Below are positions 25,780-37,285 of a DNA stretch of 37,285 nucleotides, piece after piece; within the stretch, counting starts at the first letter, position 1, and each line of letters begins with the position of its first letter. The translations under genes were made by a program, and so were the position numbers. The notes under the pieces are model-generated. The model made no database searches and was not told the DNA's origin. It was given only the letters and a program-made list of their open reading frames with translations. Source of the DNA: Microcaldota archaeon (lineage in GTDB: Archaea > Micrarchaeota > Micrarchaeia > Anstonellales > Anstonellaceae); contig JAPLWX010000010.1 of NCBI GenBank assembly GCA_026396415.1, positions 1 through 37,285 on the forward strand. The letters run 5' to 3'.

Positions 25780-27162
25780 ATGCTTTCCAAAGACGACGTA
25801 ACCGCCCTCCTCTCCCAGGAGGAAGGCTCCAGGCTGGAGTTCAAGAAGTCAGCTCATTTCAATGAGAGTGTTGGCAGGTCAGTCTGCGCTTTTGCCAATT
25901 CAGGCGGCGGGCTTTTGGTTCTGGGAGTGGAAAGGACAGATGGCAAAACAGCCGTGGCCGGGATTGCCAAGGATGAGGCATATCAGAAAATGGCCGCCAT
26001 CCTGCCGTTGCTTGAGCCAAGGCCAACCGTCACTTATGAGGAACACACTGTAGAGGGCAAACATGTCCTAATAGCCAACGTCACCGCCCTGCCCATAGAC
26101 CAGGTTTGCTTCTTCGAGAAAGGGGTTTATGTCCGCCAAGGCTCGGTCAACGTGGAAATCCGCAAGCACGAGCTGGTTGGCTTCCTCCGGGCACGCGGCA
26201 TAATCTCATTCGAGGAAAACCGCTCCCCAGCCAAACTTTTGGATCTTGATAAACAGAAGGTCAGCAAGCACGTGGCACAGCGGACTGGAAAGCCTGCAGA
26301 TATTGACGGGATGCCCACCGAGACTCTTTTGCAGAGCTTGGGGGTCGCCAATAGCGTTGGGGAGTTCTACATCAAGAATGCCGGGGTACTATCATTCGCC
26401 AAGGACGTTTCGCGCTTCTTTTCAAACACCGAAATTCGCGTAGTCAAATACAAGGGACGCACTGCCACGCTGGAGGCCCGCGAATCCGACCAGAGGTTCA
26501 TCGACACCGCCCCGGAGCTTCTGGAGAAGGCATTCAAGGCCATCCGGGAGAAGGCCGGCTTTTCGGCTCGCGTGGTGGATGGGAAACGGGTCGAGATGCC
26601 TATGGTCCCGGACATGGCGCTGCGCGAAACCCTCACAAACGCAGTCGGCCACCGTGACTATTTCGACCCGAACGGAATCCTGGTCGAGATATTCGACGAC
26701 CGCATCCAAATCACCAGCCCTGGAACGCTGCTCCCAGGACAGACTCTCAAGAACTTCGCTGACATCCGCCGCCACCGCAATCCCGTTCTCCATCGCATCC
26801 TCAATGATGCCGGCTGGGGCGAAGGCTTGAATCTGGGCGTGCGGGCGATATACCGCATCATGCGCCAGAACGGCCTTCCGGACCCGGTTTTCGATGATTT
26901 GGGCGGGTTCTTCCGGGTTGTCCTCTATGGCTCGCTTTCAGACCGCGTATCAAAGCCCTATGGCCAGATTAGCGAGATGCAGCAGAAAGCATTGGCTTAT
27001 CTGGAAAAGCACGAAACGCTCACAGCTCCGGCTTATGCCAAATTGATTGGCTACTCGCACCCGACTGCAATCCGTTATCTTAATGATTTGGTGGCACAGG
27101 GAATACTGAAGAGGCTGGGAAGTTACCGATCATCAAGATATGTCAAGGACAAGAAAGGTTAA
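25780..27162 (+). CDS. Schlafen/AlbA_2-domain protein with GHKL-like and winged-helix domains
   Basis: The N-terminal 130 residues form an AlbA_2 (Schlafen-type) domain (GSRLEFKKS, ANSGGGLLVLGVE, VYVRQGS). A central region resembles the HATPase_c_4 domain of these proteins (MALRETLTNAVGHRDY, VEIFDDRIQITSPGTL, NPVLHRILNDAGWGEGLN). The last 70 residues are a winged helix (SHPTAIRYLNDLVAQGILKRLG). Such proteins are usually annotated as transcriptional regulators or RecG-like; some Schlafen-type proteins cleave RNA in defence. An ATTAAATA element about 25 bases upstream suggests a leaderless message. It lies immediately before the AT-rich island and may be part of the same accessory region. Confidence 0.8.
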   Translation: MLSKDDVTALLSQEEGSRLEFKKSAHFNESVGRSVCAFANSGGGLLVLGVERTDGKTAVAGIAKDEAYQKMAAILPLLEPRPTVTYEEHTVEGKHVLIANVTALPIDQVCFFEKGVYVRQGSVNVEIRKHELVGFLRARGIISFEENRSPAKLLDLDKQKVSKHVAQRTGKPADIDGMPTETLLQSLGVANSVGEFYIKNAGVLSFAKDVSRFFSNTEIRVVKYKGRTATLEARESDQRFIDTAPELLEKAFKAIREKAGFSARVVDGKRVEMPMVPDMALRETLTNAVGHRDYFDPNGILVEIFDDRIQITSPGTLLPGQTLKNFADIRRHRNPVLHRILNDAGWGEGLNLGVRAIYRIMRQNGLPDPVFDDLGGFFRVVLYGSLSDRVSKPYGQISEMQQKALAYLEKHETLTAPAYAKLIGYSHPTAIRYLNDLVAQGILKRLGSYRSSRYVKDKKG

Positions 27163-27310
27163 AGTATTAAATGAAAAGTAGTTTAATATAAGTTTATTCA
27201 AAATTTACGATAGTTTAGTATGGTTTAGTATTATACGACGTGAAAAGTTGATAAGGTTTAGATTTCGATTGACGGTCCAAAGTATTAAAAAATACTAATC
27301 GGTCATATTT
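27163..27310. promoter_or_regulatory. AT-rich boundary and promoter region of the defence island
   Basis: Composition changes sharply to AT-rich here. The stretch holds several TTTAGTAT/AGTATTAAA-like words and a perfect inverted repeat AGTATT-AAAA-AATACT at 27281-27296. The latter is itself a TATA element about 25 bases before the methyltransferase start, so a protein bound there would block transcription. Confidence 0.5.
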
Positions 27311-28165
27311 ATGATGGATATTAAGAACCAGATTTTTTACGGGGATTCCGCTGATATATTGACGAAATACCCTTCGAATTCGGTGGACCTTATTGTTACG
27401 TCCCCACCCTATTCAAATAGACGAAAGCGTTCTTATGGAGGCATAAGTCCTGACAGATATGTAGAGTGGTTTTTGCCGATTAGTAAGGAATTATATCGCA
27501 TATTGAAACAAGATGGTTCCTTCGTTCTGAATATTAAAGAAGGAGCAAATGGGGAGCGAGAAATCTACGTGCTTGAACTGATTTTGGCTCTGCGTAAGCA
27601 AGGATGGTACTGGACCGAGGAATATATCTGGTATAAAACCACATGCATGCCAGGCAAATGGCCAAATCGGTTCAGAGACGCGTGGGAGCGCTGCTTGCAA
27701 TTTACTAAAGGAAGGAAATTTCGTATGAACCAGCGCGCAGTTAAGATACCTATTGGAAACTGGGCAAAGAAGAGGATGAAGAATCTCTCAGAAAATGACA
27801 CAGTGAGAACAGCTTCAGCTACAAATAGTGGATTTGGGCGAAAAGTAGAAAATTGGGCGAATAAGCGCACAGTATACCCAGATAACGTCTTAAAAATCGC
27901 ACCAGTATGCAAGAACCACAATCACAGTGCAGTTTACCCAAAAGAACTGCCCGCGTGGTTTATCAAACTGTTTTCAAAACGAGGGGGAATAGTTCTAGAT
28001 CCATTTATCGGCTCTGGAACCACCGCAATTGCAGCGGTTGAATTGGACCGCCATTATTCCGGGGTTGAATTGAATAAAACGTATTACCAAATAGCGAAAA
28101 AAAATGTTCAAAATGCTTTGCACACTAAAGCAGCATCAATTTCGACTATCAAAGCTCCTCGATGA
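27311..28165 (+). CDS. DNA methyltransferase, beta class (N4-cytosine or N6-adenine)
   Basis: The catalytic motif TSPPY is at residues 30-34 and the AdoMet-binding motif DPFIGSGTT at 230-238. This order defines beta-class amino-methyltransferases; TSPPY is most usual for N4-cytosine enzymes, but N6-adenine cannot be excluded. The 284-residue length is normal for a stand-alone enzyme with a target-recognition segment in the middle (residues 110-205). Its natural role would be to protect host DNA from the nuclease encoded opposite. Its 3' end overlaps that of the nuclease gene by 17 bases. Codon use and AT content differ from core genes, indicating acquisition. Starts ATG at 27311 or 27314. Confidence 0.88.
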   Translation: MMDIKNQIFYGDSADILTKYPSNSVDLIVTSPPYSNRRKRSYGGISPDRYVEWFLPISKELYRILKQDGSFVLNIKEGANGEREIYVLELILALRKQGWYWTEEYIWYKTTCMPGKWPNRFRDAWERCLQFTKGRKFRMNQRAVKIPIGNWAKKRMKNLSENDTVRTASATNSGFGRKVENWANKRTVYPDNVLKIAPVCKNHNHSAVYPKELPAWFIKLFSKRGGIVLDPFIGSGTTAIAAVELDRHYSGVELNKTYYQIAKKNVQNALHTKAASISTIKAPR

Positions 28166-29129
28166 GAACACCCTGTGGCGTAATCTTGTATTTAGGATTA
28201 CTGAGAACAGTATCTACTGGGTTCTGGAATAAGACTGGTGTATTCGTTGCTGTTCGCGTCTTTTTGTTAATTCCACCGATAAAATAAATCCAATATTTCT
28301 CTTTGAGATTCTTAGCCACCTTTATTTCATTATCACTCATATAGAATCGAGTCTTGGAACTTTTTGCGCCTTTAACCTCAATGAAACGGTCGTGAACCAT
28401 GCCCCTACTTTCTCCATCAAAGGATGCTATATCGTATCCTGCATCCGGCCGCAGTTTGCTAATATGGCTGATACATGAACATTCGACCTTTCCTCCAGCA
28501 GTTCTGACCCGCTCTTTTTCGTGTGCCAACATCAGTTCTTCTGCGATTTCACCAATTTCCTTTCGCTCAGCAAGATATTCTTCGAGTGCTTTTGGAGTCC
28601 AACCTTTTCCTTCAGCCAACAAATTAGCCACAGCATCCACATATTCTGATTTAACTTCCAATATTGACGGGAGACGATTTAGCAATTCAAGTTGAATGAG
28701 ATGCTCAATAATTAATGGATCGCCCTTCATAGGTAAACTGTCGACATCTGACCAGCGGAATGTTTGCGCATCATATACTTTTGTGAAGCATCCCAGTATC
28801 TCTATTGTGGCATTGCAGTAACGTCCTGAAAAATAATGTTTTCGGATTAACATTCGTTTTTGGTCACTCGTCAATTCATAGGATTTCTCAGGGTTCAAAT
28901 CCAAAAATTCTTTCCCAGACTCAGAAACTGTTATTCTATCATCTTTCGATGAGAGAAACTCTAATGATTCTGCGAATTGAATTGACAAATAATGGTCAGG
29001 CAAAACACTATCGATTACAATTGTTTCACATTGCTGAACAACAGACGCCTGAGTTACTGATTCGCTAGGAGGAGCAATTGCGGTAGCGGCAAGAAGTACA
29101 CGGTTTAACTCCGCAAGACGAATGATCAT
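28149..29129 (-). CDS. DUF3883-type PD-(D/E)XK nuclease, 326 aa
   Basis: The C-terminal 130 residues match the DUF3883 pattern: GEIAEELMLAHEKERV, then AGYDIASFD and RFIEVKGAKSSKTRFYMSDNEIKVA. The D...EVK arrangement is a PD-(D/E)XK nuclease core. The N-terminal 190 residues are helical, and could bind DNA or contact the helicase. DUF3883 domains are frequent in restriction and defence genes. The start codon directly follows the helicase stop (TAAATG), so the two are translationally coupled. It is the last gene of the three-gene operon. I infer that it cuts unmodified DNA located by the helicase. Confidence 0.75.
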   Translation of the reverse strand: MIIRLAELNRVLLAATAIAPPSESVTQASVVQQCETIVIDSVLPDHYLSIQFAESLEFLSSKDDRITVSESGKEFLDLNPEKSYELTSDQKRMLIRKHYFSGRYCNATIEILGCFTKVYDAQTFRWSDVDSLPMKGDPLIIEHLIQLELLNRLPSILEVKSEYVDAVANLLAEGKGWTPKALEEYLAERKEIGEIAEELMLAHEKERVRTAGGKVECSCISHISKLRPDAGYDIASFDGESRGMVHDRFIEVKGAKSSKTRFYMSDNEIKVAKNLKEKYWIYFIGGINKKTRTATNTPVLFQNPVDTVLSNPKYKITPQGVLIEEL

Positions 29130-31031
29130 TTAATCTTGCCCCAACTCCTTCTTAAGCCCGGTTAGGACAGCTGCGAAATCTTTTTCTTCGTCAATTTCTT
29201 CGCTGAAGGCAGATTCGTCAACATCCAAATCAAGCACGCTGAAATCCTCATCGAGAATTCTTAGCATTCTGTTCTGCTTTTCCTCTAATCGGCTGTCAAT
29301 TATTTCATCAATTGTATTCTTCGATAGGAATATCCAATAATGAACGTGATCGTTCTCTCCAAGGCCAACACGGTGGATACGATCCAATGATTGCATATAG
29401 TGTGCGCCGTTAAATGTGCGATCAACATAGATTGCATGCATGCAGATTTTATGAAGTGAAATGGACTCTGCGCATGCTCCCGGATTAACAATAAGCAATT
29501 TGCGCGAGTCGATAGTCTTAAAATCGCGAATAATTCTCTCGCGGTTAATTTCTTCATCTTCTTTATCATCCTTTGGGATTCCACCATGAATTATCATAGG
29601 ATTTAAATCCGCTAAAGAATTCCTTAATGTTTCGATGTTATGAACAAAACTAGTCCATACAACAACTTTCTCCCCCTTTTCAGATACAAGAGTTCGAACA
29701 AGTTTCTCAACTGCAAGTAGTTTTTTTGGTTTTTCATAACTTGAGTAGCGATCAATTATTTCCATGATAGAAAGACCAGATGCTTCCAAAGGAGGGATTT
29801 GAAATTCAGGTGAATTTTCCTTTAATAGACTCGGATTACTAGCCGCTTGTAGTAGCCGAACCATTCGAGCCTTACGCCACGGTCTCAGTTTTACGCGGTC
29901 TTCCGGAGCATGGACGACATCCGACAAAACTTTTGTTGCCAATGCACGATATATAGTTGATTGGTACGGGCTTAGTTCCACCGAGATTCTATGAAACTGT
30001 GGAATCGGTAGCCCTAAATCGCGTTTATGTATTCTCCAATAAAGTGGACCCAAATCTCTCCGAACTTGTTCTTCTAATGCCGTTGGATTCTTGTCAAATT
30101 GATACCTGAACTGTTCCCGTTCTCCTAAAATAGTCTCATTGGGCCATAAAAAAGCTATTTGACTCCATATATCCTGAATGGAGTTTGGAATTGGAGTGCC
30201 AGTTAAAATTACCCTTCTCTTTGCAAAGGGTGCCAAGGACAAGACGACATCGGCCCATCTGCCTCCCTCTATTCGTTTGATGTTATGAGATTCGTCCAAT
30301 ACTAACATAGCTTTCGATTGCCGTAATAAGGCCTCTAAATCTTGCTGGTCATTGGCTGCCATTTGATACGAGAGCAAAACTAAATCGGCGTTTGCCGCGT
30401 CTCGAAATAACCCGGGTCGGCTCGTTTTGCTTCCACTGATTCTTACTGTGTTTGGTTTTTTGCCAAAACAGGCTTCATATTCATCTTCCCAAGGCATAAA
30501 ACACGCACGAGGTCCGATTACAACAAGGCGATCAATCTCGTGGTTTTCTCTTAATATTGCATATGCAGCTAGAACAATGGATGTTTTTCCACTGCCAGGA
30601 ACTGAGAAATTTGCAGCTCCGTCTAATCCAGATAAATGTGCCACAGCTGGAATCTGGTATAATTTTAATGGACGTTTGAATCCTGGAACCGTTAGGGTAG
30701 CGACACGGTTTTTCTTTAACTCGGAACCGATTTCTTTGGATCTTTCAAACCGATGATGCTCATCTTCAACGTCCATGGCTAGCTTTGATGCTCTTTCGTC
30801 GAGTTCAAAACTGATCCCTTTTTCACGCAAGTATTGTAAGGTTTCTTGGAGTTTTTTATGTACATTAGAACCTGCGTCTATGTAAAGCGCGGAAGTCCCT
30901 TCATCACGCTGGAATCCAAGTATGTTGACAAAATATATTCTGTGTTGCCAGCCTAATATGGGCGAATCTTTTTCTGCGGTTAATTGTATTATACCGTTAA
31001 CTACTGAAATTCTTACGACTTCCGTGCCCAT
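29130..31031 (-). CDS. SNF2-type superfamily 2 helicase/translocase, 633 aa
   Basis: The SF2 motifs appear in order: Walker A SVPGSGKTS near residue 140, DESH box LVLDESHNIK near 245, ILTGTPIPNS (motif III), VVWTSF (motif IV), VNPGACAESISL (motif V) and SLDRIHRVG (motif VI). The arrangement is SNF2-like, so it probably moves along double-stranded DNA rather than unwinding it. The first 110 residues have no recognised fold and may bind a partner. The last 50 residues are very acidic. The gene lies four bases after the ParB-like gene and abuts the nuclease gene. In comparable ATP-dependent restriction systems such as CglI/NgoAVII, a separate helicase-like subunit drives cleavage. Confidence 0.87.
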   Translation of the reverse strand: MGTEVVRISVVNGIIQLTAEKDSPILGWQHRIYFVNILGFQRDEGTSALYIDAGSNVHKKLQETLQYLREKGISFELDERASKLAMDVEDEHHRFERSKEIGSELKKNRVATLTVPGFKRPLKLYQIPAVAHLSGLDGAANFSVPGSGKTSIVLAAYAILRENHEIDRLVVIGPRACFMPWEDEYEACFGKKPNTVRISGSKTSRPGLFRDAANADLVLLSYQMAANDQQDLEALLRQSKAMLVLDESHNIKRIEGGRWADVVLSLAPFAKRRVILTGTPIPNSIQDIWSQIAFLWPNETILGEREQFRYQFDKNPTALEEQVRRDLGPLYWRIHKRDLGLPIPQFHRISVELSPYQSTIYRALATKVLSDVVHAPEDRVKLRPWRKARMVRLLQAASNPSLLKENSPEFQIPPLEASGLSIMEIIDRYSSYEKPKKLLAVEKLVRTLVSEKGEKVVVWTSFVHNIETLRNSLADLNPMIIHGGIPKDDKEDEEINRERIIRDFKTIDSRKLLIVNPGACAESISLHKICMHAIYVDRTFNGAHYMQSLDRIHRVGLGENDHVHYWIFLSKNTIDEIIDSRLEEKQNRMLRILDEDFSVLDLDVDESAFSEEIDEEKDFAAVLTGLKKELGQD

Positions 31032-31035
31032 AGTA

Positions 31036-32208
31036 TCAGCACTTCGTTCTTGTTAGTATCACATATAGCGTACCAACTTTGGACTTTAATTCCTCTAATG
31101 ACTTAATTAGTTCTTTGTCTTGCATATGTGCGGGATTGCTCGGATCTATAGCCCCTATCATCGCAATTGCTCTTTCTACCAGTTGTTTAGGCTTTTCTTT
31201 TTCCTCCTTTGCATCAACCATTTCAATTGCAAGACGGAATCGATCAACTAGATCACTTGTGACAGACTCTTTATGATTGTCTGGCTGAAAGCCAGTTACC
31301 ATTGTTTCTTTTGCATTTTTATCTTGCATTATACCTCTAAGTTTTCTAACCTCTAGATAAGTTACATTTTCACTTTCAATAAGGCGAAAGGCAATTGGTA
31401 TGACTTCTGCGGCAGCTTTTTTTGAGACTTTATTTAATAATGGTTCTACGACATTATCATTTAAACTATTGAACAGCTCGACTTTGCGTTGACCTTGAAA
31501 TTTTATATATTGGCCTTTCTGATTTGTAGATTCCAAGTAACTATCGATTAACTCTAAAACTTTTAGTCGGCTTTTAAGTTCATTTATAGTAAATCTTCCC
31601 CCTAGCGATTGGGATATTTCTGTAAGAGTCAATCCGCTTTTCACACCCTCTCGTAGCTTAAGCAATTCGTTTACGGGTCCGTATTCAAGACGAAAGTCTT
31701 TTGCGAATTGTAAGCCTGCCTCTATGCGCCAGAGTTCCTTCTCATTTATGTTTTTTGGCAAGACGGCAGCTTTCAGATAGCCATATCTATCATTGCCAGT
31801 CTCAGAATGAAGCTTTGAGAGTATAGCCATGCGTCGATTGGCATTAATAACTGCTCCGTCAAACGTGACAAGTCCTGGGTCTAGTTGGCCATGTGTTATT
31901 AAATCATTCATCAAATTCTCGGTTTCATCTGGTTTTTGCTGAAGAAGAATTTCTTGGAGTATCTTGGCGTCTTGTTCAATAGATGGATCTAATTTACGTT
32001 TCAAATCACTTTCTTTCTTAAGAAGTTCTGCGCTAAAACGTCCATTTCTGATATTATAGATAAGCAGCTTTAAAGGAATACGATAGACGGGTAAATATTG
32101 ATTTTGACCACCTATAAGTACTGGAGCTTTGAGTTCTGGAACTAGCTGATTGGGATTGTTTTTTATGTATTCTTCAAGCACTTTAGAGCGCTCCGTAAAG
32201 ATATCCAT
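31036..32208 (-). CDS. ParB/Srx-fold DNA-binding or nuclease-like protein, 390 aa
   Basis: Residues 30-140 resemble the ParB/sulfiredoxin fold: YLPVYRIPLKLLIYNIRNGRF early on, and GLVTFDGAVINANRRMAIL near 113, matching the dGNRR motif of ParB-like domains. A helix-turn-helix-like part follows near 190 (LTLTEISQSLGGRFTINELKSRLKVL). The C-terminal 170 residues are helical. ParB-like domains bind DNA or hydrolyse NTPs, and occur in several defence systems, such as Dnd/Ssp. It starts with ATG behind a strong AGAGGTGA, and is the first gene of the operon. Its job may be target recognition or regulation; that is inference. Confidence 0.65.
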   Translation of the reverse strand: MDIFTERSKVLEEYIKNNPNQLVPELKAPVLIGGQNQYLPVYRIPLKLLIYNIRNGRFSAELLKKESDLKRKLDPSIEQDAKILQEILLQQKPDETENLMNDLITHGQLDPGLVTFDGAVINANRRMAILSKLHSETGNDRYGYLKAAVLPKNINEKELWRIEAGLQFAKDFRLEYGPVNELLKLREGVKSGLTLTEISQSLGGRFTINELKSRLKVLELIDSYLESTNQKGQYIKFQGQRKVELFNSLNDNVVEPLLNKVSKKAAAEVIPIAFRLIESENVTYLEVRKLRGIMQDKNAKETMVTGFQPDNHKESVTSDLVDRFRLAIEMVDAKEEKEKPKQLVERAIAMIGAIDPSNPAHMQDKELIKSLEELKSKVGTLYVILTRTKC

Positions 32209-32426: not shown

Positions 32427-32936
32427 ATGCAACAAAGTTGCCTCAAGCTAACAAGAAGCGAACAGCACTTCCTAACATGCCTCGCAGAGGGCAGCGACAA
32501 GAACGACTCGAAGATAGCAAAGGAAATGGGGCTTAACCGCTCCTCCATTTCGCGCATAAGGAAAAAGCTCTTGGAGGAAGGCGTGCTGACCGGCCGTTAT
32601 CCCCCGCTTGATTTGGAGAAAATGGGCGTCTGCTTCTATCACGTGATTGTTTTCCAGTGGAATGCCTATGCAGACAAGAAACTGACGCAGAAAATGGAGA
32701 AGGATTTCACTTCCACGCCGCACACAATCTATTTCGCCGAGGGCTCGAACCCCGGCAGCAAGTACATCGCCAACATGGCGTTCCTTACCTTCGAGGAGTA
32801 CAACGATTTCCTTGCAGAGTTCAAGGAAAAGTACGGGAAGTACATCTCCGGCCTTGAATCATTCTTTATCCAGCCAAAGCGCATACTCAAGGAAGGTTAC
32901 GGAGACTTGGCAAAGTTGCTGATTGGAGGTGTGTAA
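32427..32936 (+). CDS. Lrp/AsnC-like transcriptional regulator, 169 aa
   Basis: An N-terminal winged helix (LTRSEQHFLTCLAEG...KIAKEMGLNRSSISRIRKKLLEEGVL, residues 7-55) is followed by a RAM-like alpha/beta domain (VCFYHVIVFQWNAYADKKL, NMAFLTFEEYNDFLAEFKEKYGKYI). The architecture matches Lrp-type regulators, though the second domain is divergent. The message appears leaderless. The next gene starts two bases after its stop codon with GGAGGTG as ribosome-binding site, so it probably controls the surface-protein operon it begins, and possibly the divergent restriction operon. Confidence 0.75.
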   Translation: MQQSCLKLTRSEQHFLTCLAEGSDKNDSKIAKEMGLNRSSISRIRKKLLEEGVLTGRYPPLDLEKMGVCFYHVIVFQWNAYADKKLTQKMEKDFTSTPHTIYFAEGSNPGSKYIANMAFLTFEEYNDFLAEFKEKYGKYISGLESFFIQPKRILKEGYGDLAKLLIGGV

Positions 32937-32937
32937 G

Positions 32938-34824
32938 ATGGACCGGCACGCAAACATAATTGCTTTTGCCGTTGTAATGATGCTGATCCCGACTGCTTTT
33001 TCTGCCGCCACCTATGACGACTGCCTTAATGCCATAAATGCCATGTCTCCGCCAATCAAGGATGCGCAATCCCGCCTGGACTTTCTGAACAGCAAACTCA
33101 ATGACGCGAACACGTATGGAATATCTTCCCCAACACATTCCTCAGCCGCAACCAGCGCGCAAAACCTGCTCACCAAGGCAAAAGCCTCTGAACACTCAGC
33201 AAGCGCGGATTTCGCAGGCGCAAAATACGATGCCTGCGTGTATGACGCATCAAGCGCAAAAAACTACGCGTCACAGGCAGGAACCATAGCGGATTCCTCC
33301 GCAATTTTGGTCTTTTCCATGCTCGCCGCTCAACTGAATTATGAAATAACAACAGACCAGACTTCCCTCCAGCTTGCAGATGGAACCTCAACCACCGTTC
33401 TTATCCGGCTGGCATCCCGCGACAACAGGAAGCTGGACTGCGGCTACCAGACATCTCAAACCCCGTTGCAGGAGCTTGGGATAATCCCCCCTTCGGGCAC
33501 GCAGAGCTTCCCGGCGACCGTGCAGGCACCGCCCAGCGGCAACGGCACGATGCAGTTCCTTGTCTATGTGTCCTGCTCTGTCGGAAGCTACATGAGCGGC
33601 GAAAAGCAGGCGGCAATAGAAGTACAATACCGGCCCGACCCAGTCCTCCTTGCAATCAACCAAGCAAACAAGAGCATAGCCAGCGCGCAGACCTGGATTG
33701 ACATGGCAAGCGGCGTTATCGGCAATGCCTCTGACATCGGGATGGATACGAGGAACGAAATCGCCGCAGTTGCAACCTCCAAGGGCCTGCTGCTGAATGC
33801 AAGGGATTACCTGCAAAGCGCGCAGACATATATTTCCTCAAGCGACGAGGGGGCGAAAGCCGACGCGGACAAGGCAAATGACTATGCCACCCAGGCGGGG
33901 GAGAAGGCAAGAACCGCCTATGAATCGCTGAACAGCAACATTGAGACGTGCAAGGAGGCTTACAGACAGATTGTCTCCGCGCAGGCTGATATATCCGATG
34001 CCGATGCCATTTATACAAAGCTCGCTTCGGTTGTGAGGAGCCTGCCTGGCGAGATGAACGCTGGCGCGGCAGCGCAGGACGTGGAGGCGCAAAGGCAGAA
34101 GCTTGACAGGGCGAAGAACGAGAACTCGCAGGCAAAGACGCAGCTTTCAGCAGGCTATTGCGGGCAGTCGGTGAACAGTGGCATAAGCGCGAGGAACGAC
34201 GCGGCTGACGCGAGTAATCAACTAAGCCGCGTGGCGGAAAGGATGAAGGATACCATAGTGTCCGCGCTGGATGCAGCTTCGTTGCAAACGGAAAGCAAAA
34301 TCGGGGCTGCGAGGAATGCGACTGCAGCAGCCGGAGGTACTTTCCTGGCTGATTCCGCCAAGACAATATACGCGCAGCAGCAGCTCACGGATGCCCAAAC
34401 CGCGCTGCTTGGCGCGCAGGGGGCAGTGGAAAGCGCGAAGCAGGCCACCAGCCTCTCTGATTTCCTTGATAAAACAGCTGATGCATTCGGAAAGCTGCAA
34501 AACGTGGACATTGTTGCCGATTCAAGCCTGCAGAGCGCCGACTCTGCCAGAAATGATGCTTATGTGAAGTACGGGGTTGCAATTGCTGCAGTCATTGTTG
34601 CCGTTGGGGTTGGATTCCTTTTCTGGAACCGGAAGCAGGGGAGGGAAAGGAAGGGCAAACCCAGCCCGAAAGTTGAGCGTCTTCTTACAGCGAGGGAATA
34701 TGGGGAAGCAGCCGAACGCTATGCCTTAAAGCACGAATACCAAAAAGCGGCGGAATATTACGCTAAAGCAGGCAAATACGAGAAAGCCAAGGAAATGTAC
34801 AAGAAATCAATCAAGAAGAGGTGA
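32938..34824 (+). CDS. Surface-anchored coiled-coil protein with cytoplasmic TPR-like tail, 628 aa
   Basis: Residues 1-23 form a signal peptide (ANIIAFAVVMMLIPTAFSA). The long exported part is mostly helical repeats rich in Ala, Ser, Asp and Lys (SAQNLLTKAKASEHSASADFAGAKYDACVYDASSA-type units), interrupted by a beta domain at about 125-225 that looks Ig-like. A single transmembrane helix lies at about 548-567 (YGVAIAAVIVAVGVGFLFW), then a basic stop-transfer (NRKQGRERKGK). The last 45 residues resemble a TPR (YGEAAERYALKHEYQKAAEYYAKAGKYEKAKEMYKKS). So an outside stalk is linked to an inside protein-binding module. ATG 32938 is fixed by GGAGGTG. Confidence 0.75.
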   Translation: MDRHANIIAFAVVMMLIPTAFSAATYDDCLNAINAMSPPIKDAQSRLDFLNSKLNDANTYGISSPTHSSAATSAQNLLTKAKASEHSASADFAGAKYDACVYDASSAKNYASQAGTIADSSAILVFSMLAAQLNYEITTDQTSLQLADGTSTTVLIRLASRDNRKLDCGYQTSQTPLQELGIIPPSGTQSFPATVQAPPSGNGTMQFLVYVSCSVGSYMSGEKQAAIEVQYRPDPVLLAINQANKSIASAQTWIDMASGVIGNASDIGMDTRNEIAAVATSKGLLLNARDYLQSAQTYISSSDEGAKADADKANDYATQAGEKARTAYESLNSNIETCKEAYRQIVSAQADISDADAIYTKLASVVRSLPGEMNAGAAAQDVEAQRQKLDRAKNENSQAKTQLSAGYCGQSVNSGISARNDAADASNQLSRVAERMKDTIVSALDAASLQTESKIGAARNATAAAGGTFLADSAKTIYAQQQLTDAQTALLGAQGAVESAKQATSLSDFLDKTADAFGKLQNVDIVADSSLQSADSARNDAYVKYGVAIAAVIVAVGVGFLFWNRKQGRERKGKPSPKVERLLTAREYGEAAERYALKHEYQKAAEYYAKAGKYEKAKEMYKKSIKKR

Positions 34825-34828
34825 TGGA

Positions 34829-35368
34829 GTGTTCATCCTGCCTTTCGTCATAATCCTGTCCGCCTTCTTCCTGCTCCTGTGGGCATCAGACCTCTTCTTC
34901 ACGCTAAAGTGCACGGAAAAGAGGGGGCGCGAGCTGGAAGCCAACCCGCTAATGAGAATGCTGCTCAAGGAAAGGCGCGCGCACCTCTACATCTTCAAGG
35001 CGCTTGAGATAATCTGCTTCTTCGCGCTGATTTACCTAATTTCTTTTCAGAACGCAGATTACGCAGTGATAATCCTCCTGATTGCCACTGGCGCATATTC
35101 GCTCGTCGTTTCAAACGGCATGGCATTCTACCTTGAAATTGCGAAGAAGCCAGCCATCGCCTCGCGCCTGCTTTTCCTTGTGTGCCTTGCCGTGCTTTTG
35201 TTCGCATATCTCGCTTACGAAACGTTTGCAAACGGGGAAAGCCTATTCGCTTCATGCTCCAAGTGCTGCGAGGACTACGCCACCCTCAAGGCGAGTTGCG
35301 CGCCCGTTCAGCCTGTCGCACATAACAATCCTGCAAATTCGGACATAAATATCACCGTGCCGGGCTAA
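34829..35368 (+). CDS. Four-helix membrane protein with Cys-containing tail, 179 aa
   Basis: Four hydrophobic helices occupy most of residues 1-130 (first FVIILSAFFLLLWASDLFFTL). The C-terminal 45 residues are polar and contain CSKCCEDY and another Cys (KASCAP), which may form disulfides outside the cell. No family is recognised. The start is GTG, four bases after the previous stop codon and preceded by GAGGTGAT, so it belongs to the surface-protein operon and may help assemble or anchor that protein. Confidence 0.7.
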   Translation: MFILPFVIILSAFFLLLWASDLFFTLKCTEKRGRELEANPLMRMLLKERRAHLYIFKALEIICFFALIYLISFQNADYAVIILLIATGAYSLVVSNGMAFYLEIAKKPAIASRLLFLVCLAVLLFAYLAYETFANGESLFASCSKCCEDYATLKASCAPVQPVAHNNPANSDINITVPG

Positions 35369-35389
35369 AGTGGCACGGCTTTGAGTGGG

Positions 35390-36190
35390 ATGATGCAAAA
35401 TACCCCAGCGAGAGCTACAGCCGGCGCGCAAGTGCAGCTGCGCGATGCAATAAAGCCGTTTTTTGATGGCGGTCAGCCAAGGAACCTTATCCTTCATGCC
35501 TGGGCGGGAACGGGCATAAATGAGGCTGTTATGAGCGTCCTGAAGGGTTTTGAGAGAAGCTCGCGGGTGAAGGTGGTCTGTGTGGACTGCTGGCGGTATT
35601 CCACGAGGATGGCGGTTTATTCGCTCATTGCGCGCGCCATAGGTGAGATGCTGCCGCGCAGGGGGCTGGCAAGGGACGAAGTATTTGACAGGATAATCGA
35701 GATGATGGAAAAGGACGGTGCCAGGCTGCTTCTTGTGCTGGACGGGCTAGAGGGACTTTTCCACAATGGTGAGGAGAGGCTGCTGGATGACTTCTGCTGC
35801 ATGGGAAAGCTGTTTTGCGTGGTTGGGATAACGGATGATGCGAAGCTGCGCGCCAGGATTGGCACTGGATTCACGTGCTACGAGGCAACGCAGCCGGATG
35901 GGAAGATAATGCTTGGAGACATGGAGAGGCAGGACACTGGCGGTTCTTCCCCAGCCAACCTGAGCGAGGAGGAACGGATAATCATTGATATTGTCAAGAC
36001 AGGCCCGAAAAGCTCCACAGACCTTTACCTGGCGTTTTTCAGGAAATTGAAACGGAGCAGGCGGCAGATACGCAATTACCTGAGCGGGCTTGAGGCAAAG
36101 AAGCTGCTTTTCATACAAACGGTGGAAGGGGCAAACCCGCTGCTCAACACGCGCATGATACGGCTCAATATTGGGAGGGAAGTCGCATGA
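35390..36190 (+). CDS. Cdc6/Orc1-like AAA protein with degenerate Walker A, 266 aa
   Basis: The fold resembles Orc1/Cdc6: LRDAIKPFFDGGQPRNLILHAWAGTG at the P-loop region, VVCVDCWRYSTRMAVYSLIARAIG like the Cdc6 NC...T segment, a Walker B-like LLLVLDGLEGLF, and a C-terminal winged helix (SSTDLYLAFFRKLKRSRRQIRNYLSGLEAKKLL). The P loop reads AGTGINEAV, lacking the conserved Lys-Thr/Ser, and Walker B has DG where DE or DD is usual, so ATP binding is probably lost. It may bind DNA without ATP control. A TATA-like ATAAATATC near 35345 serves it. ATG 35390 was preferred to an upstream TTG. It overlaps the histone-fold gene by four bases. Confidence 0.65.
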   Translation: MMQNTPARATAGAQVQLRDAIKPFFDGGQPRNLILHAWAGTGINEAVMSVLKGFERSSRVKVVCVDCWRYSTRMAVYSLIARAIGEMLPRRGLARDEVFDRIIEMMEKDGARLLLVLDGLEGLFHNGEERLLDDFCCMGKLFCVVGITDDAKLRARIGTGFTCYEATQPDGKIMLGDMERQDTGGSSPANLSEEERIIIDIVKTGPKSSTDLYLAFFRKLKRSRRQIRNYLSGLEAKKLLFIQTVEGANPLLNTRMIRLNIGREVA

Positions 36191-36366
36191 ACGGTGAAAG
36201 CCTTGTTTCAAAAAACAGCGTTGGGCTGTACTTGCGCGGCAAGGGGGTGAGGGTTTCCTCGCGGCTCGTTCCACAGCTTGATGAGAAGGCAAAGGAAATT
36301 CTCGAAGCTGCCATCAAAAGGGCGGAATTGAATGGAAGGAGCACAGTAATGGTCCAGGATTTGTGA
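36187..36366 (+). CDS. Small histone-fold-like protein, 59 aa
   Basis: The sequence after residue 20 follows the histone-fold pattern: RVSSRLVPQLDEKAKEILEA (helix 2) and ELNGRSTVMVQDL (loop 2 and start of helix 3, compare GRKTVxxxD in archaeal histones). The N-terminus before it (SLVSKNSVGLYLRGKG) is unusual and lacks a normal helix 1, so it may be a shortened or DUF1931-like form. The ATGA overlap with the Cdc6-like gene implies translational coupling. A 45-bp near copy of its 3' end occurs at 36935-36979. Below 60 codons it is easily missed. Confidence 0.7.
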   Translation: MNGESLVSKNSVGLYLRGKGVRVSSRLVPQLDEKAKEILEAAIKRAELNGRSTVMVQDL

Positions 36367-36367
36367 G
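36323..36367. repeat. 45-bp direct repeat, copy 1 (3' end of histone-fold gene)
   Basis: Forty-two of 45 bases match 36935-36979. The repeat covers the last 14 codons of the histone-fold gene plus its stop codon. The GNAT gene lies between the two copies. Confidence 0.85.
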
Positions 36368-36408
36368 GCGCGCACGTTCTTATTTTTTTCGCAGGCTATC
36401 AATAAGCG

Positions 36409-36879
36409 ATGGCGCACAAATTGCTGATAAGGAGATACCAAGACTCTGATTTTGAGGAAATGTTCAGGCTTCACCATCTTGCTCTCGTGCAGGTTGGAGC
36501 TGATTTGGGCAAGGGGCCGTGGGACGACGACTTGCACAGCATAAAAAAGGAATACCTTGACGATAGGGGCGAATTTCTCATAGCTACAATTGGCGGACGG
36601 CTTGTTGGGATGGGTGCGTTTCGCAAAAAAGATGAAAAAACAGCCGAAATAAAGAGGATGAGGGTGCGCCCAGACTTGCAGAAGAAAGGAATTGGCACCA
36701 GATTACTGGAAAAATTGGAGGCAAAAGCAAAGGAATTGGGCTACGGCAGGCTAATTCTAGATTCCACTACAAAACAGGCTGGCGCGCTAAGCTTTTACAG
36801 AAAAAAAGGATACACTGAGTGTGGAAGGAAAAGGGTTGGAAAATTCGATGTGATAATGATGGGAAAGGAATTGGGGTAA
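36409..36879 (+). CDS. GNAT-family N-acetyltransferase, 156 aa
   Basis: The acetyl-CoA-binding motif A reads IKRMRVRPDLQKKGIGTRLLEKL (residues 81-103), with QKKGIG as the pyrophosphate loop, and motif B continues with LILDSTTKQAGALSFYRKKGY. Length and layout are typical for a single GNAT domain that transfers acetyl from acetyl-CoA to an amine; the substrate is unknown. It lies between two 45-bp repeats, suggesting it entered as a unit or the segment was duplicated. The promoter is weak: a CTTATTTTTTTC run near 36376-36388. Codon use is a little richer in A/T than core genes. Confidence 0.85.
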   Translation: MAHKLLIRRYQDSDFEEMFRLHHLALVQVGADLGKGPWDDDLHSIKKEYLDDRGEFLIATIGGRLVGMGAFRKKDEKTAEIKRMRVRPDLQKKGIGTRLLEKLEAKAKELGYGRLILDSTTKQAGALSFYRKKGYTECGRKRVGKFDVIMMGKELG

Positions 36880-36934
36880 ATTGCGCTGTCTTTTTGCCAT
36901 GGGCGTGCGCAAAGCCATTTTGCCTTTCAAGTGA

Positions 36935-36979
36935 CGGAATTGAATGGAAGGAGCACGGTAATGGCGCAGGATTTGTGAG
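36935..36979. repeat. 45-bp direct repeat, copy 2 (orphan 3' end of histone-fold gene)
   Basis: This copy encodes the same C-terminus (ELNGRSTVMAQDL and stop) but has no gene upstream of it, so it is a fragment. One of the three differences changes Val to Ala in the encoded peptide. Confidence 0.85.
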
Positions 36980-37030
36980 TTTGGCGCGGGATTGACACGA
37001 GAAACGAACGAGGCTTCAGTCTGCACAATG

Positions 37031-37061
37031 TCGTGTCGTGCATATAAACAAAACGACACGA
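37031..37061. promoter_or_regulatory. TATA element framed by a perfect 9-bp inverted repeat
   Basis: TCGTGTCGT at 37031-37039 and ACGACACGA at 37053-37061 frame a 13-base centre holding CATATAAAC. The right arm belongs to a 19-bp word repeated at 36994. This looks like a regulated promoter, but no long frame follows in either direction, so it may drive an RNA or be a relic. Confidence 0.5.
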
Positions 37062-37163
37062 GAAATGAACGAGAATTTGCCCCTTTTCCACACCTGAGGT
37101 GGCTGCTTTCCAGCCCCCCTAAAACGCCCCACATATTATTGTCTGCCCTGAATTTCTCGCTTA

Positions 37164-37186
37164 TTAGGTATGCTATGCCTACCTAA
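37164..37186. promoter_or_regulatory. Operator-like inverted repeat TTAGGTA-N9-TACCTAA
   Basis: Perfect seven-base arms. It shares a 15-base word, ATTAGGTATGCTATG, with the palindrome at 37241-37266, 88 bases to the right, so both are probably sites of one regulator. Confidence 0.55.
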
Positions 37187-37240
37187 CTCTAGTTTTTCTC
37201 TCGGAAATGACATTTTACTGTACTGATGGTATTATTAATT

Positions 37241-37262
37241 AGCATACCTAATTAGGTATGCT
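37241..37262. promoter_or_regulatory. Perfect 22-bp palindrome before a start codon
   Basis: AGCATACCTAA is followed at once by its exact reverse complement. It fills the space between the TATA-like TATTATTAATTA (37230-37241) and the ATG at 37263, exactly where a repressor would block initiation. Confidence 0.65.
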
Positions 37263-37285
37263 ATGGCACACCGTGTTTACAAAAT
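37263..37285 (+). CDS. Partial gene cut by the window edge
   Basis: Only the first seven codons are visible (MAHRVYK). The ATG lies about 26 bases past a TATA element and directly after a perfect palindrome, so this should be the start of a tightly regulated, leaderless gene, perhaps an autoregulated DNA-binding protein. No function can be assigned. Confidence 0.45.

What the first reader, a model, noticed from the sequence alone, without database searches (positions are those of the whole stretch)
35390..36366. Cdc6-like protein without an ATP site, coupled to a histone-fold gene
AGTGINEAV replaces the normal P loop in a Cdc6-like protein whose winged helix is intact, and the next gene, overlapping by four bases, encodes a short histone-fold-like protein. 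A DNA-binding pair acting at an origin, a plasmid partition site or in chromatin is conceivable.
Basis: partly seen in the sequence, partly recalled or inferred. Interest (0 to 1): 0.6.

Follow-up and report, generated by a model that had tools for sequence, protein, structure and literature searches.

The report
ATP-less Cdc6 relative paired with histone
In a group of tiny archaea (Micrarchaeota), genes for a replication-initiator protein and a small DNA-wrapping histone sit side by side on mobile-element-like DNA; the copy in this window has lost its ATP-using part, yet it and a sister copy with the same loss show the mark of natural selection rather than free decay.

Summary
Window 35390-36190 encodes an Orc1/Cdc6 relative with an intact winged helix but no ATP site: P-loop lysine and second Walker-B acid replaced, lid domain deleted. 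The next gene (36187-36366, four-base overlap) encodes a 59-residue face-to-face-type histone.

The pair is no accident. In 19 loci of 14 Micrarchaeota genomes the same short histone follows an Orc1/Cdc6 gene, nearly always 11-80 nt apart; all lie in one fully supported Orc clade, many beside a convergent VirB4-type ATPase, in integrated conjugative-like elements. About half of these modules carry element-specific repeats just downstream; in several an inverted pair flanks a TATATAA core, as in orc-adjacent archaeal origins.

The ATP-less form is a derived offshoot, seen only here and in a second copy of the same genome (C15, 80% identical, histone lost). Changes between the two are purifying (56 amino-acid differences against 93 expected; 0 of 2000 neutral simulations). 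Most likely it is an ATP-independent DNA-binding derivative of an element's origin module; a decaying remnant is the main rival. Origin function is inferred, not shown. I found no report of an Orc-histone operon.

The parts
35390..36190 (+). Orc1/Cdc6-derived protein without an ATP site: degenerate core (residues 9-166), disordered linker, winged helix (192-258)
36187..36366 (+). 59-residue alpha3-truncated, face-to-face-type histone, overlapping the Orc gene by four bases
36921..36979 (+). Second copy of the histone gene's 3' end (85% identical over 59 nt), remnant of a duplication or recombination
36994..37073 (.). Origin-like array: two 19-nt direct repeats (36994-37012, 37055-37073), 9-bp dyad 37031-37039/37053-37061 around CATATAAACAAAA (37041-37053)
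34829..35368 (+). DUF5658 membrane protein gene, same strand, directly upstream of the Orc gene; also upstream of the Orc in C15, C19 and C47e
32923..34824 (+). 633-residue protein with a predicted membrane segment and TPR-like tail; related gene upstream in C19 and C47e
36409..36879 (+). GNAT acetyltransferase gene between the two histone 3' ends; taken as cargo

Best explanation
The window end carries a derived copy of a conserved two-gene module of Micrarchaeota: an Orc1/Cdc6-family initiator followed by a face-to-face-type histone, next to an origin-like repeat array, in integrated VirB4-bearing elements. Shown by sequence: the pairing, the array, the VirB4 neighbourhood of relatives, the loss of the ATP site here, and purifying selection between the two ATP-less copies. 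Inferred: in intact modules the Orc binds the adjoining repeats and starts or controls copying of the element, and the histone wraps or shapes the DNA at that site. Inferred for this copy: without Walker A, the Walker-B acid and the lid it cannot work as an ATP switch, so it acts as an ATP-independent winged-helix DNA-binding protein that occupies the array or joins an ATP-competent Orc paralogue of the same genome (as Orc2 and Orc3 do inside eukaryotic ORC, from general knowledge), with the histone as architectural partner.
For: Pair in 19 loci of 14 genomes, all in one 100/100 Orc clade. C13 and C15 share the deletion and the P-loop change; 56 amino-acid differences against 92.7 expected without selection, 0 of 2000 simulations as low, no stops; dN/dS 0.054/0.318 in the core. 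Core and winged helix predicted to fold. Histone keeps all five face-to-face hallmark residues. Arrays with inverted repeats around an AT-rich core next to the module, as described for orc-adjacent origins (PMC3528665). Sister Orcs share a repeat type: C19/C47e, C13/C15, C47s/G019-C81.
Against: C15 has lost its histone and C13 shows a GNAT insertion and a duplicated histone tail, so the module is being rearranged. The C13 winged helix is nearer to C47e (74%) than to C15 (68%) although its repeats resemble those of C15, which does not fit simple winged-helix reading of the repeats. Half of the examined downstream stretches lack repeats. No binding or expression data. LFW-281 shares a repeat type with C47s though their Orcs are distant.
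Confidence: 0.5

Rival explanations
1. The ATP-less Orc and its histone are a remnant of a once intact element module, now decaying and without function.
For: Loss of lid, Walker motifs and N-terminus; histone lost in C15; duplicated histone tail and inserted GNAT in C13; no VirB4 in the 0.9 kb that remain of the contig, whereas relatives have it 340-720 nt from the Orc.
Against: Two copies with 18% nucleotide divergence keep open frames and far fewer amino-acid changes than neutral simulation, in core and winged helix alike. Exchange with selected paralogues could mimic part of this.
Confidence: 0.25
2. The module is regulatory, not replicative: Orc-derived protein and histone bind the array as an operator and silence or tune element genes such as VirB4.
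For: The array contains a TATA-box-like TATATAA core flanked by dyads and lies between the module and VirB4. An ATP-less Orc would suit a repressor.
Against: VirB4 is convergent in most relatives, so the array is at its 3' end, not at its promoter. Intact relatives keep a full ATPase.
Confidence: 0.17
3. The histone is a general chromatin protein that happens to be co-transcribed with an Orc gene; the two do not work together.
For: Face-to-face histones elsewhere are often abundant chromatin proteins with single-gene operons (PMC11390915).
Against: The genome has a separate nucleosomal histone on C29; all three of its face-to-face-type histones follow an Orc; the pairing is kept in 14 genomes; seven sampled haloarchaeal plasmid face-to-face histones have no orc beside them.
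Confidence: 0.08

Closest known systems
Archaeal Orc1/Cdc6 initiators (A. pernix Orc1 2v1u, S. solfataricus Orc1 2qby, P. aerophilum Cdc6 1fnn)
   Same: Core fold and C-terminal winged helix; gene next to inverted repeats around an AT-rich stretch
   Different: No P-loop lysine, no second Walker-B acid, no lid domain, no N-terminal stretch; histone gene attached
Face-to-face histones (T. kodakarensis HTkC 9f2c, Leptospira HLp 9qt0)
   Same: Length, short third helix, the R, N and RxTxxxxD residues, predicted fold (TM about 0.9)
   Different: Encoded in an operon with an Orc in mobile-element-like DNA, whereas alpha3 histones are described as single-gene operons (PMC11390915)
RdgC-histone and IHF-histone operons (PMC11390915)
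   Same: A histone fixed in an operon with another DNA-acting protein
   Different: Other histone classes and other partners
Orc/Cdc6-bearing integrative-conjugative elements of Thaumarchaeota (PMC6563490) and Orc-bearing plasmids of Methanoperedens (PMC9674854)
   Same: Element-borne Orc1/Cdc6; VirB4 in the former; repeats beside the Orc gene and a nucleoid protein (MC1, elsewhere on the plasmid) in the latter
   Different: No Orc-histone operon reported there

Membership tests
Orc1/Cdc6 initiator ATPases | AAA+ core fold with C-terminal winged helix | tested here: met
   AlphaFold2 model and Foldseek; sequence matches
Orc1/Cdc6 initiator ATPases | Walker A lysine (GxxGxGK[ST]) | tested here: not met
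   AWAGTGIN in C13, AGAGTGIN in C15; lysine kept in the other paired Orcs read
Orc1/Cdc6 initiator ATPases | Walker B acidic pair | tested here: not met
   VLDG against VLDD or VLDE in relatives
Orc1/Cdc6 initiator ATPases | Lid domain with sensor 2 | tested here: not met
   About 110 residues deleted
Orc1/Cdc6 initiator ATPases | Score above the curated family cut-off | tested here: not met
   TIGR02928 56.2 bits against 181.3
Face-to-face (alpha3) histones | Third helix of 3-4 residues | tested here: met
   Residues 56-58 helical in the model; criterion from PMC11390915
Face-to-face (alpha3) histones | Residues R41, N45 and RxTxxxxD of the H. volcanii reference | tested here: met
   R45, N49, R51, T53, D58, same spacing, invariant in 14 relatives
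Face-to-face (alpha3) histones | Conserved lysine on the first helix | tested here: inconclusive
   Column 13 is K or R in 12 of 14 and G in C13 and C19; exact correspondence to the reference lysine not established
Face-to-face (alpha3) histones | Torus-shaped tetramer | not testable with these tools
   No multimer prediction available
Orc-adjacent archaeal origin | Inverted repeats around an AT-rich stretch next to the Orc gene | tested here: met
   9-bp dyad in C13 (3 of 2000 shuffles), similar in C19 and C47e, weaker in C15; criterion from PMC3528665
Orc-adjacent archaeal origin | Repeat type linked to Orc type | tested here: inconclusive
   Holds for three sister pairs, but the C13 winged helix and LFW-281 do not fit
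Orc-adjacent archaeal origin | Initiation activity | not testable with these tools
   Needs replication mapping
Integrative-conjugative element | VirB4-type ATPase and integrase in one element with defined borders | tested here: inconclusive
   VirB4 beside 12 relatives and C15, integrase-like genes near some; neither seen beside the C13 module before the contig ends; borders not determined

The most novel reading that the evidence does not exclude
Conjugative-like elements of Micrarchaeota use a dedicated two-protein origin system, an Orc1/Cdc6 plus an element-specific face-to-face histone acting on an adjoining array, and in one host this has given rise to an ATP-independent Cdc6 that still works with the histone at its own array.
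Probability: 0.25. Interest if true: 0.75.

Novelty: new variant of a known kind. Interest (0 to 1): 0.57.

Why it matters
An operon that couples an Orc1/Cdc6 initiator with a histone, kept across many genomes of an archaeal order, would tie replication initiation to local chromatin in a very simple form and gives face-to-face histones a specific partner to test. The ATP-less copy is a natural test of whether Cdc6-type proteins can serve without ATP, as some eukaryotic ORC subunits do.

Tried and rejected
Rfam over 35000-37285: no match at E up to 1, so no known RNA family explains the array. PHROGs: no match for Orc or histone. IMG/VR scan with the Orc alignment: no relatives. GTDB scan with the window protein alone: none; with alignment A1: 80 loci. 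GNAT as a histone-modifying partner: its nearest relative stands without histone or Orc within the stretch read, so it is taken as cargo. The histone 3' end as an attachment site: the motif recurs in C13 (twice), C19 and C15, with two weaker matches on C21 that were not followed; recombination there explains the C13 duplication and the C15 deletion, but no integrase link was shown. Face-to-face histones on haloarchaeal plasmids as parallels: none of seven sampled stands next to orc. GC skew: uninformative. Paper searches found no report of an Orc-histone operon, but the library holds open-licence papers only.

Full report
What was checked. The window is the whole of contig C13 (37,285 bases) of a 1.74-Mb, 52-contig draft genome; named relatives place it in Candidatus Micrarchaeota.

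The Orc. Against its closest full-length paralogues in the same genome (C19, C47 end, C47 start) the protein lacks the N-terminal stretch, has GTGIN for GTGKT, VLDG for VLDD or VLDE, and a deletion of about 110 residues covering the lid. The AlphaFold2 model (pLDDT 80) shows the alpha/beta core, a disordered linker around 168-190 and a winged helix at 192-258. Foldseek's best PDB matches are Orc/Cdc6 proteins. A second copy on contig C15 (80% identical) has the same losses.

Is the ATP-less form alive? C13 and C15 differ at 140 of 795 aligned bases with no stop in either. Neutral simulations to the same distance give on average 92.7 amino-acid differences (least 76), against 56 observed; the result holds for the core and for the winged helix apart. 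NG86 dN/dS is 0.054/0.318 over codons 1-160 and 0.263/1.187 over the last 80 codons. This argues for selection after the loss of the ATP site, with the caveat that exchange with selected paralogues may contribute: the C13 winged helix is nearer to C47e (74%) than to C15 (68%), while the cores of C13 and C15 are 88% alike.

The histone. It matches Leptospira HLp and T. kodakarensis HTkC by sequence and by fold (pLDDT 91). Its R45, N49, R51, T53 and D58 have the spacing given for face-to-face histones (R41, N45, R47, T49, D54; PMC11390915), and the third helix is three residues long. Fourteen histones of this set keep all five residues.

The pair elsewhere. Profiles of the histone and of the Orc over the fetched loci find the pair in 19 distinct loci of 14 genomes, almost always 11-80 nt from the end of the Orc homology to the start of the histone homology (442 nt in G003, where a 136-residue frame lies between). 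Within the family, 8 of 11 histone hits are adjacent to an Orc. In the tree of 54 Orcs all paired ones fall in one 100/100 clade of 34; one nested group of 13 lacks the histone. The Orcs of other DPANN lineages among the loci examined show no such histone nearby. Seven sampled face-to-face histones of haloarchaeal plasmids have no orc neighbour.

The setting. Twelve modules, and C15, have a convergent VirB4/TraG-type ATPase downstream, 340-720 nt away in six. VirB2- and VirB6-like membrane proteins, DNA methyltransferases and tyrosine-recombinase-like proteins lie near several; of these only VirB4/TraG and one integrase, on a histone-bearing contig without Orc (L080), were confirmed by Pfam, the rest are judged by eye. 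G000 holds five such Orc modules, some other genomes two. This fits integrated conjugative-like elements; borders and mobility were not determined.

The array. Between the histone (or Orc) stop and VirB4 lie short repeats whose sequence differs between elements but whose layout recurs: in C13, C15, C19 and C47e an inverted pair around TATATAA with direct repeats of 11-bp period; TGCGCTTA repeats in C47s, G019-C81 and LFW-281. Eleven of 22 downstream stretches (21 loci) have more repeated 8-mers than at least 299 of 300 shuffles. The dyad around TATAA exceeds chance in C13 (3 of 2000 shuffles), C19 (0) and C47e (10), weakly in C15 (41), not in G019-C28 (192). Haloarchaeal orc-adjacent origins are described with the same elements and with repeat type linked to Orc type (PMC3528665). 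Resemblance is shown here; origin function is not.

The C13 copy in detail. A 59-nt stretch at the histone 3' end is repeated after a GNAT gene, and the array follows the second copy. In C15 the Orc frame runs into the histone's last residues (AQDL) and then the array. Both look like recombination at the histone 3' end. The GNAT's nearest relative, in G013, has no histone or Orc beside it.

Judgement. The pair and its element-like setting are well supported. The most likely role is an origin or maintenance module of the element. For this copy I favour an ATP-independent DNA-binding derivative (0.5) over a remnant (0.25), a pure regulator (0.17) or a chance neighbour of a general chromatin protein (0.08). 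The papers found report no Orc-histone operon; alpha3 histone genes are described as single-gene operons (PMC11390915).

Noticed in passing
window 25780-32208: Defence-like island of low GC (about 40%): type II methyltransferase, PD-T4-1/PDC-S36-like protein, SNF2 (ZorD/DpdE-like) helicase, an unassigned 390-residue protein, and a protein with weak pAgo/SoFic-profile matches.
   Followed up: partly
window 36367-36979: GNAT gene inserted between the complete histone gene and a second copy of its 3' end.
   Followed up: partly
window 37160-37265: Operator-like palindrome TAGCATACCTAATTAGGTATGCTA and related repeats before a frame starting at the contig end.
   Followed up: no
L016 5951-6403: A different GNAT-like frame at the same kind of place, between the array and VirB4 in the C47e element; named by eye.
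   Followed up: no
L066 5945-6355: 136-residue frame between Orc and histone in G003; no Pfam or PHROGs family.
   Followed up: partly
L080 932-2289: Histone of this type directly after a tyrosine recombinase gene, no Orc on the short contig, with further repeat arrays downstream.
   Followed up: no
L225-L229: Face-to-face histone genes on haloarchaeal plasmids stand close to TFIIB or TBP genes in five of seven sampled records.
   Followed up: no
L063 5876-6964: Reverse transcriptase gene near the G019 C28 element.
   Followed up: no
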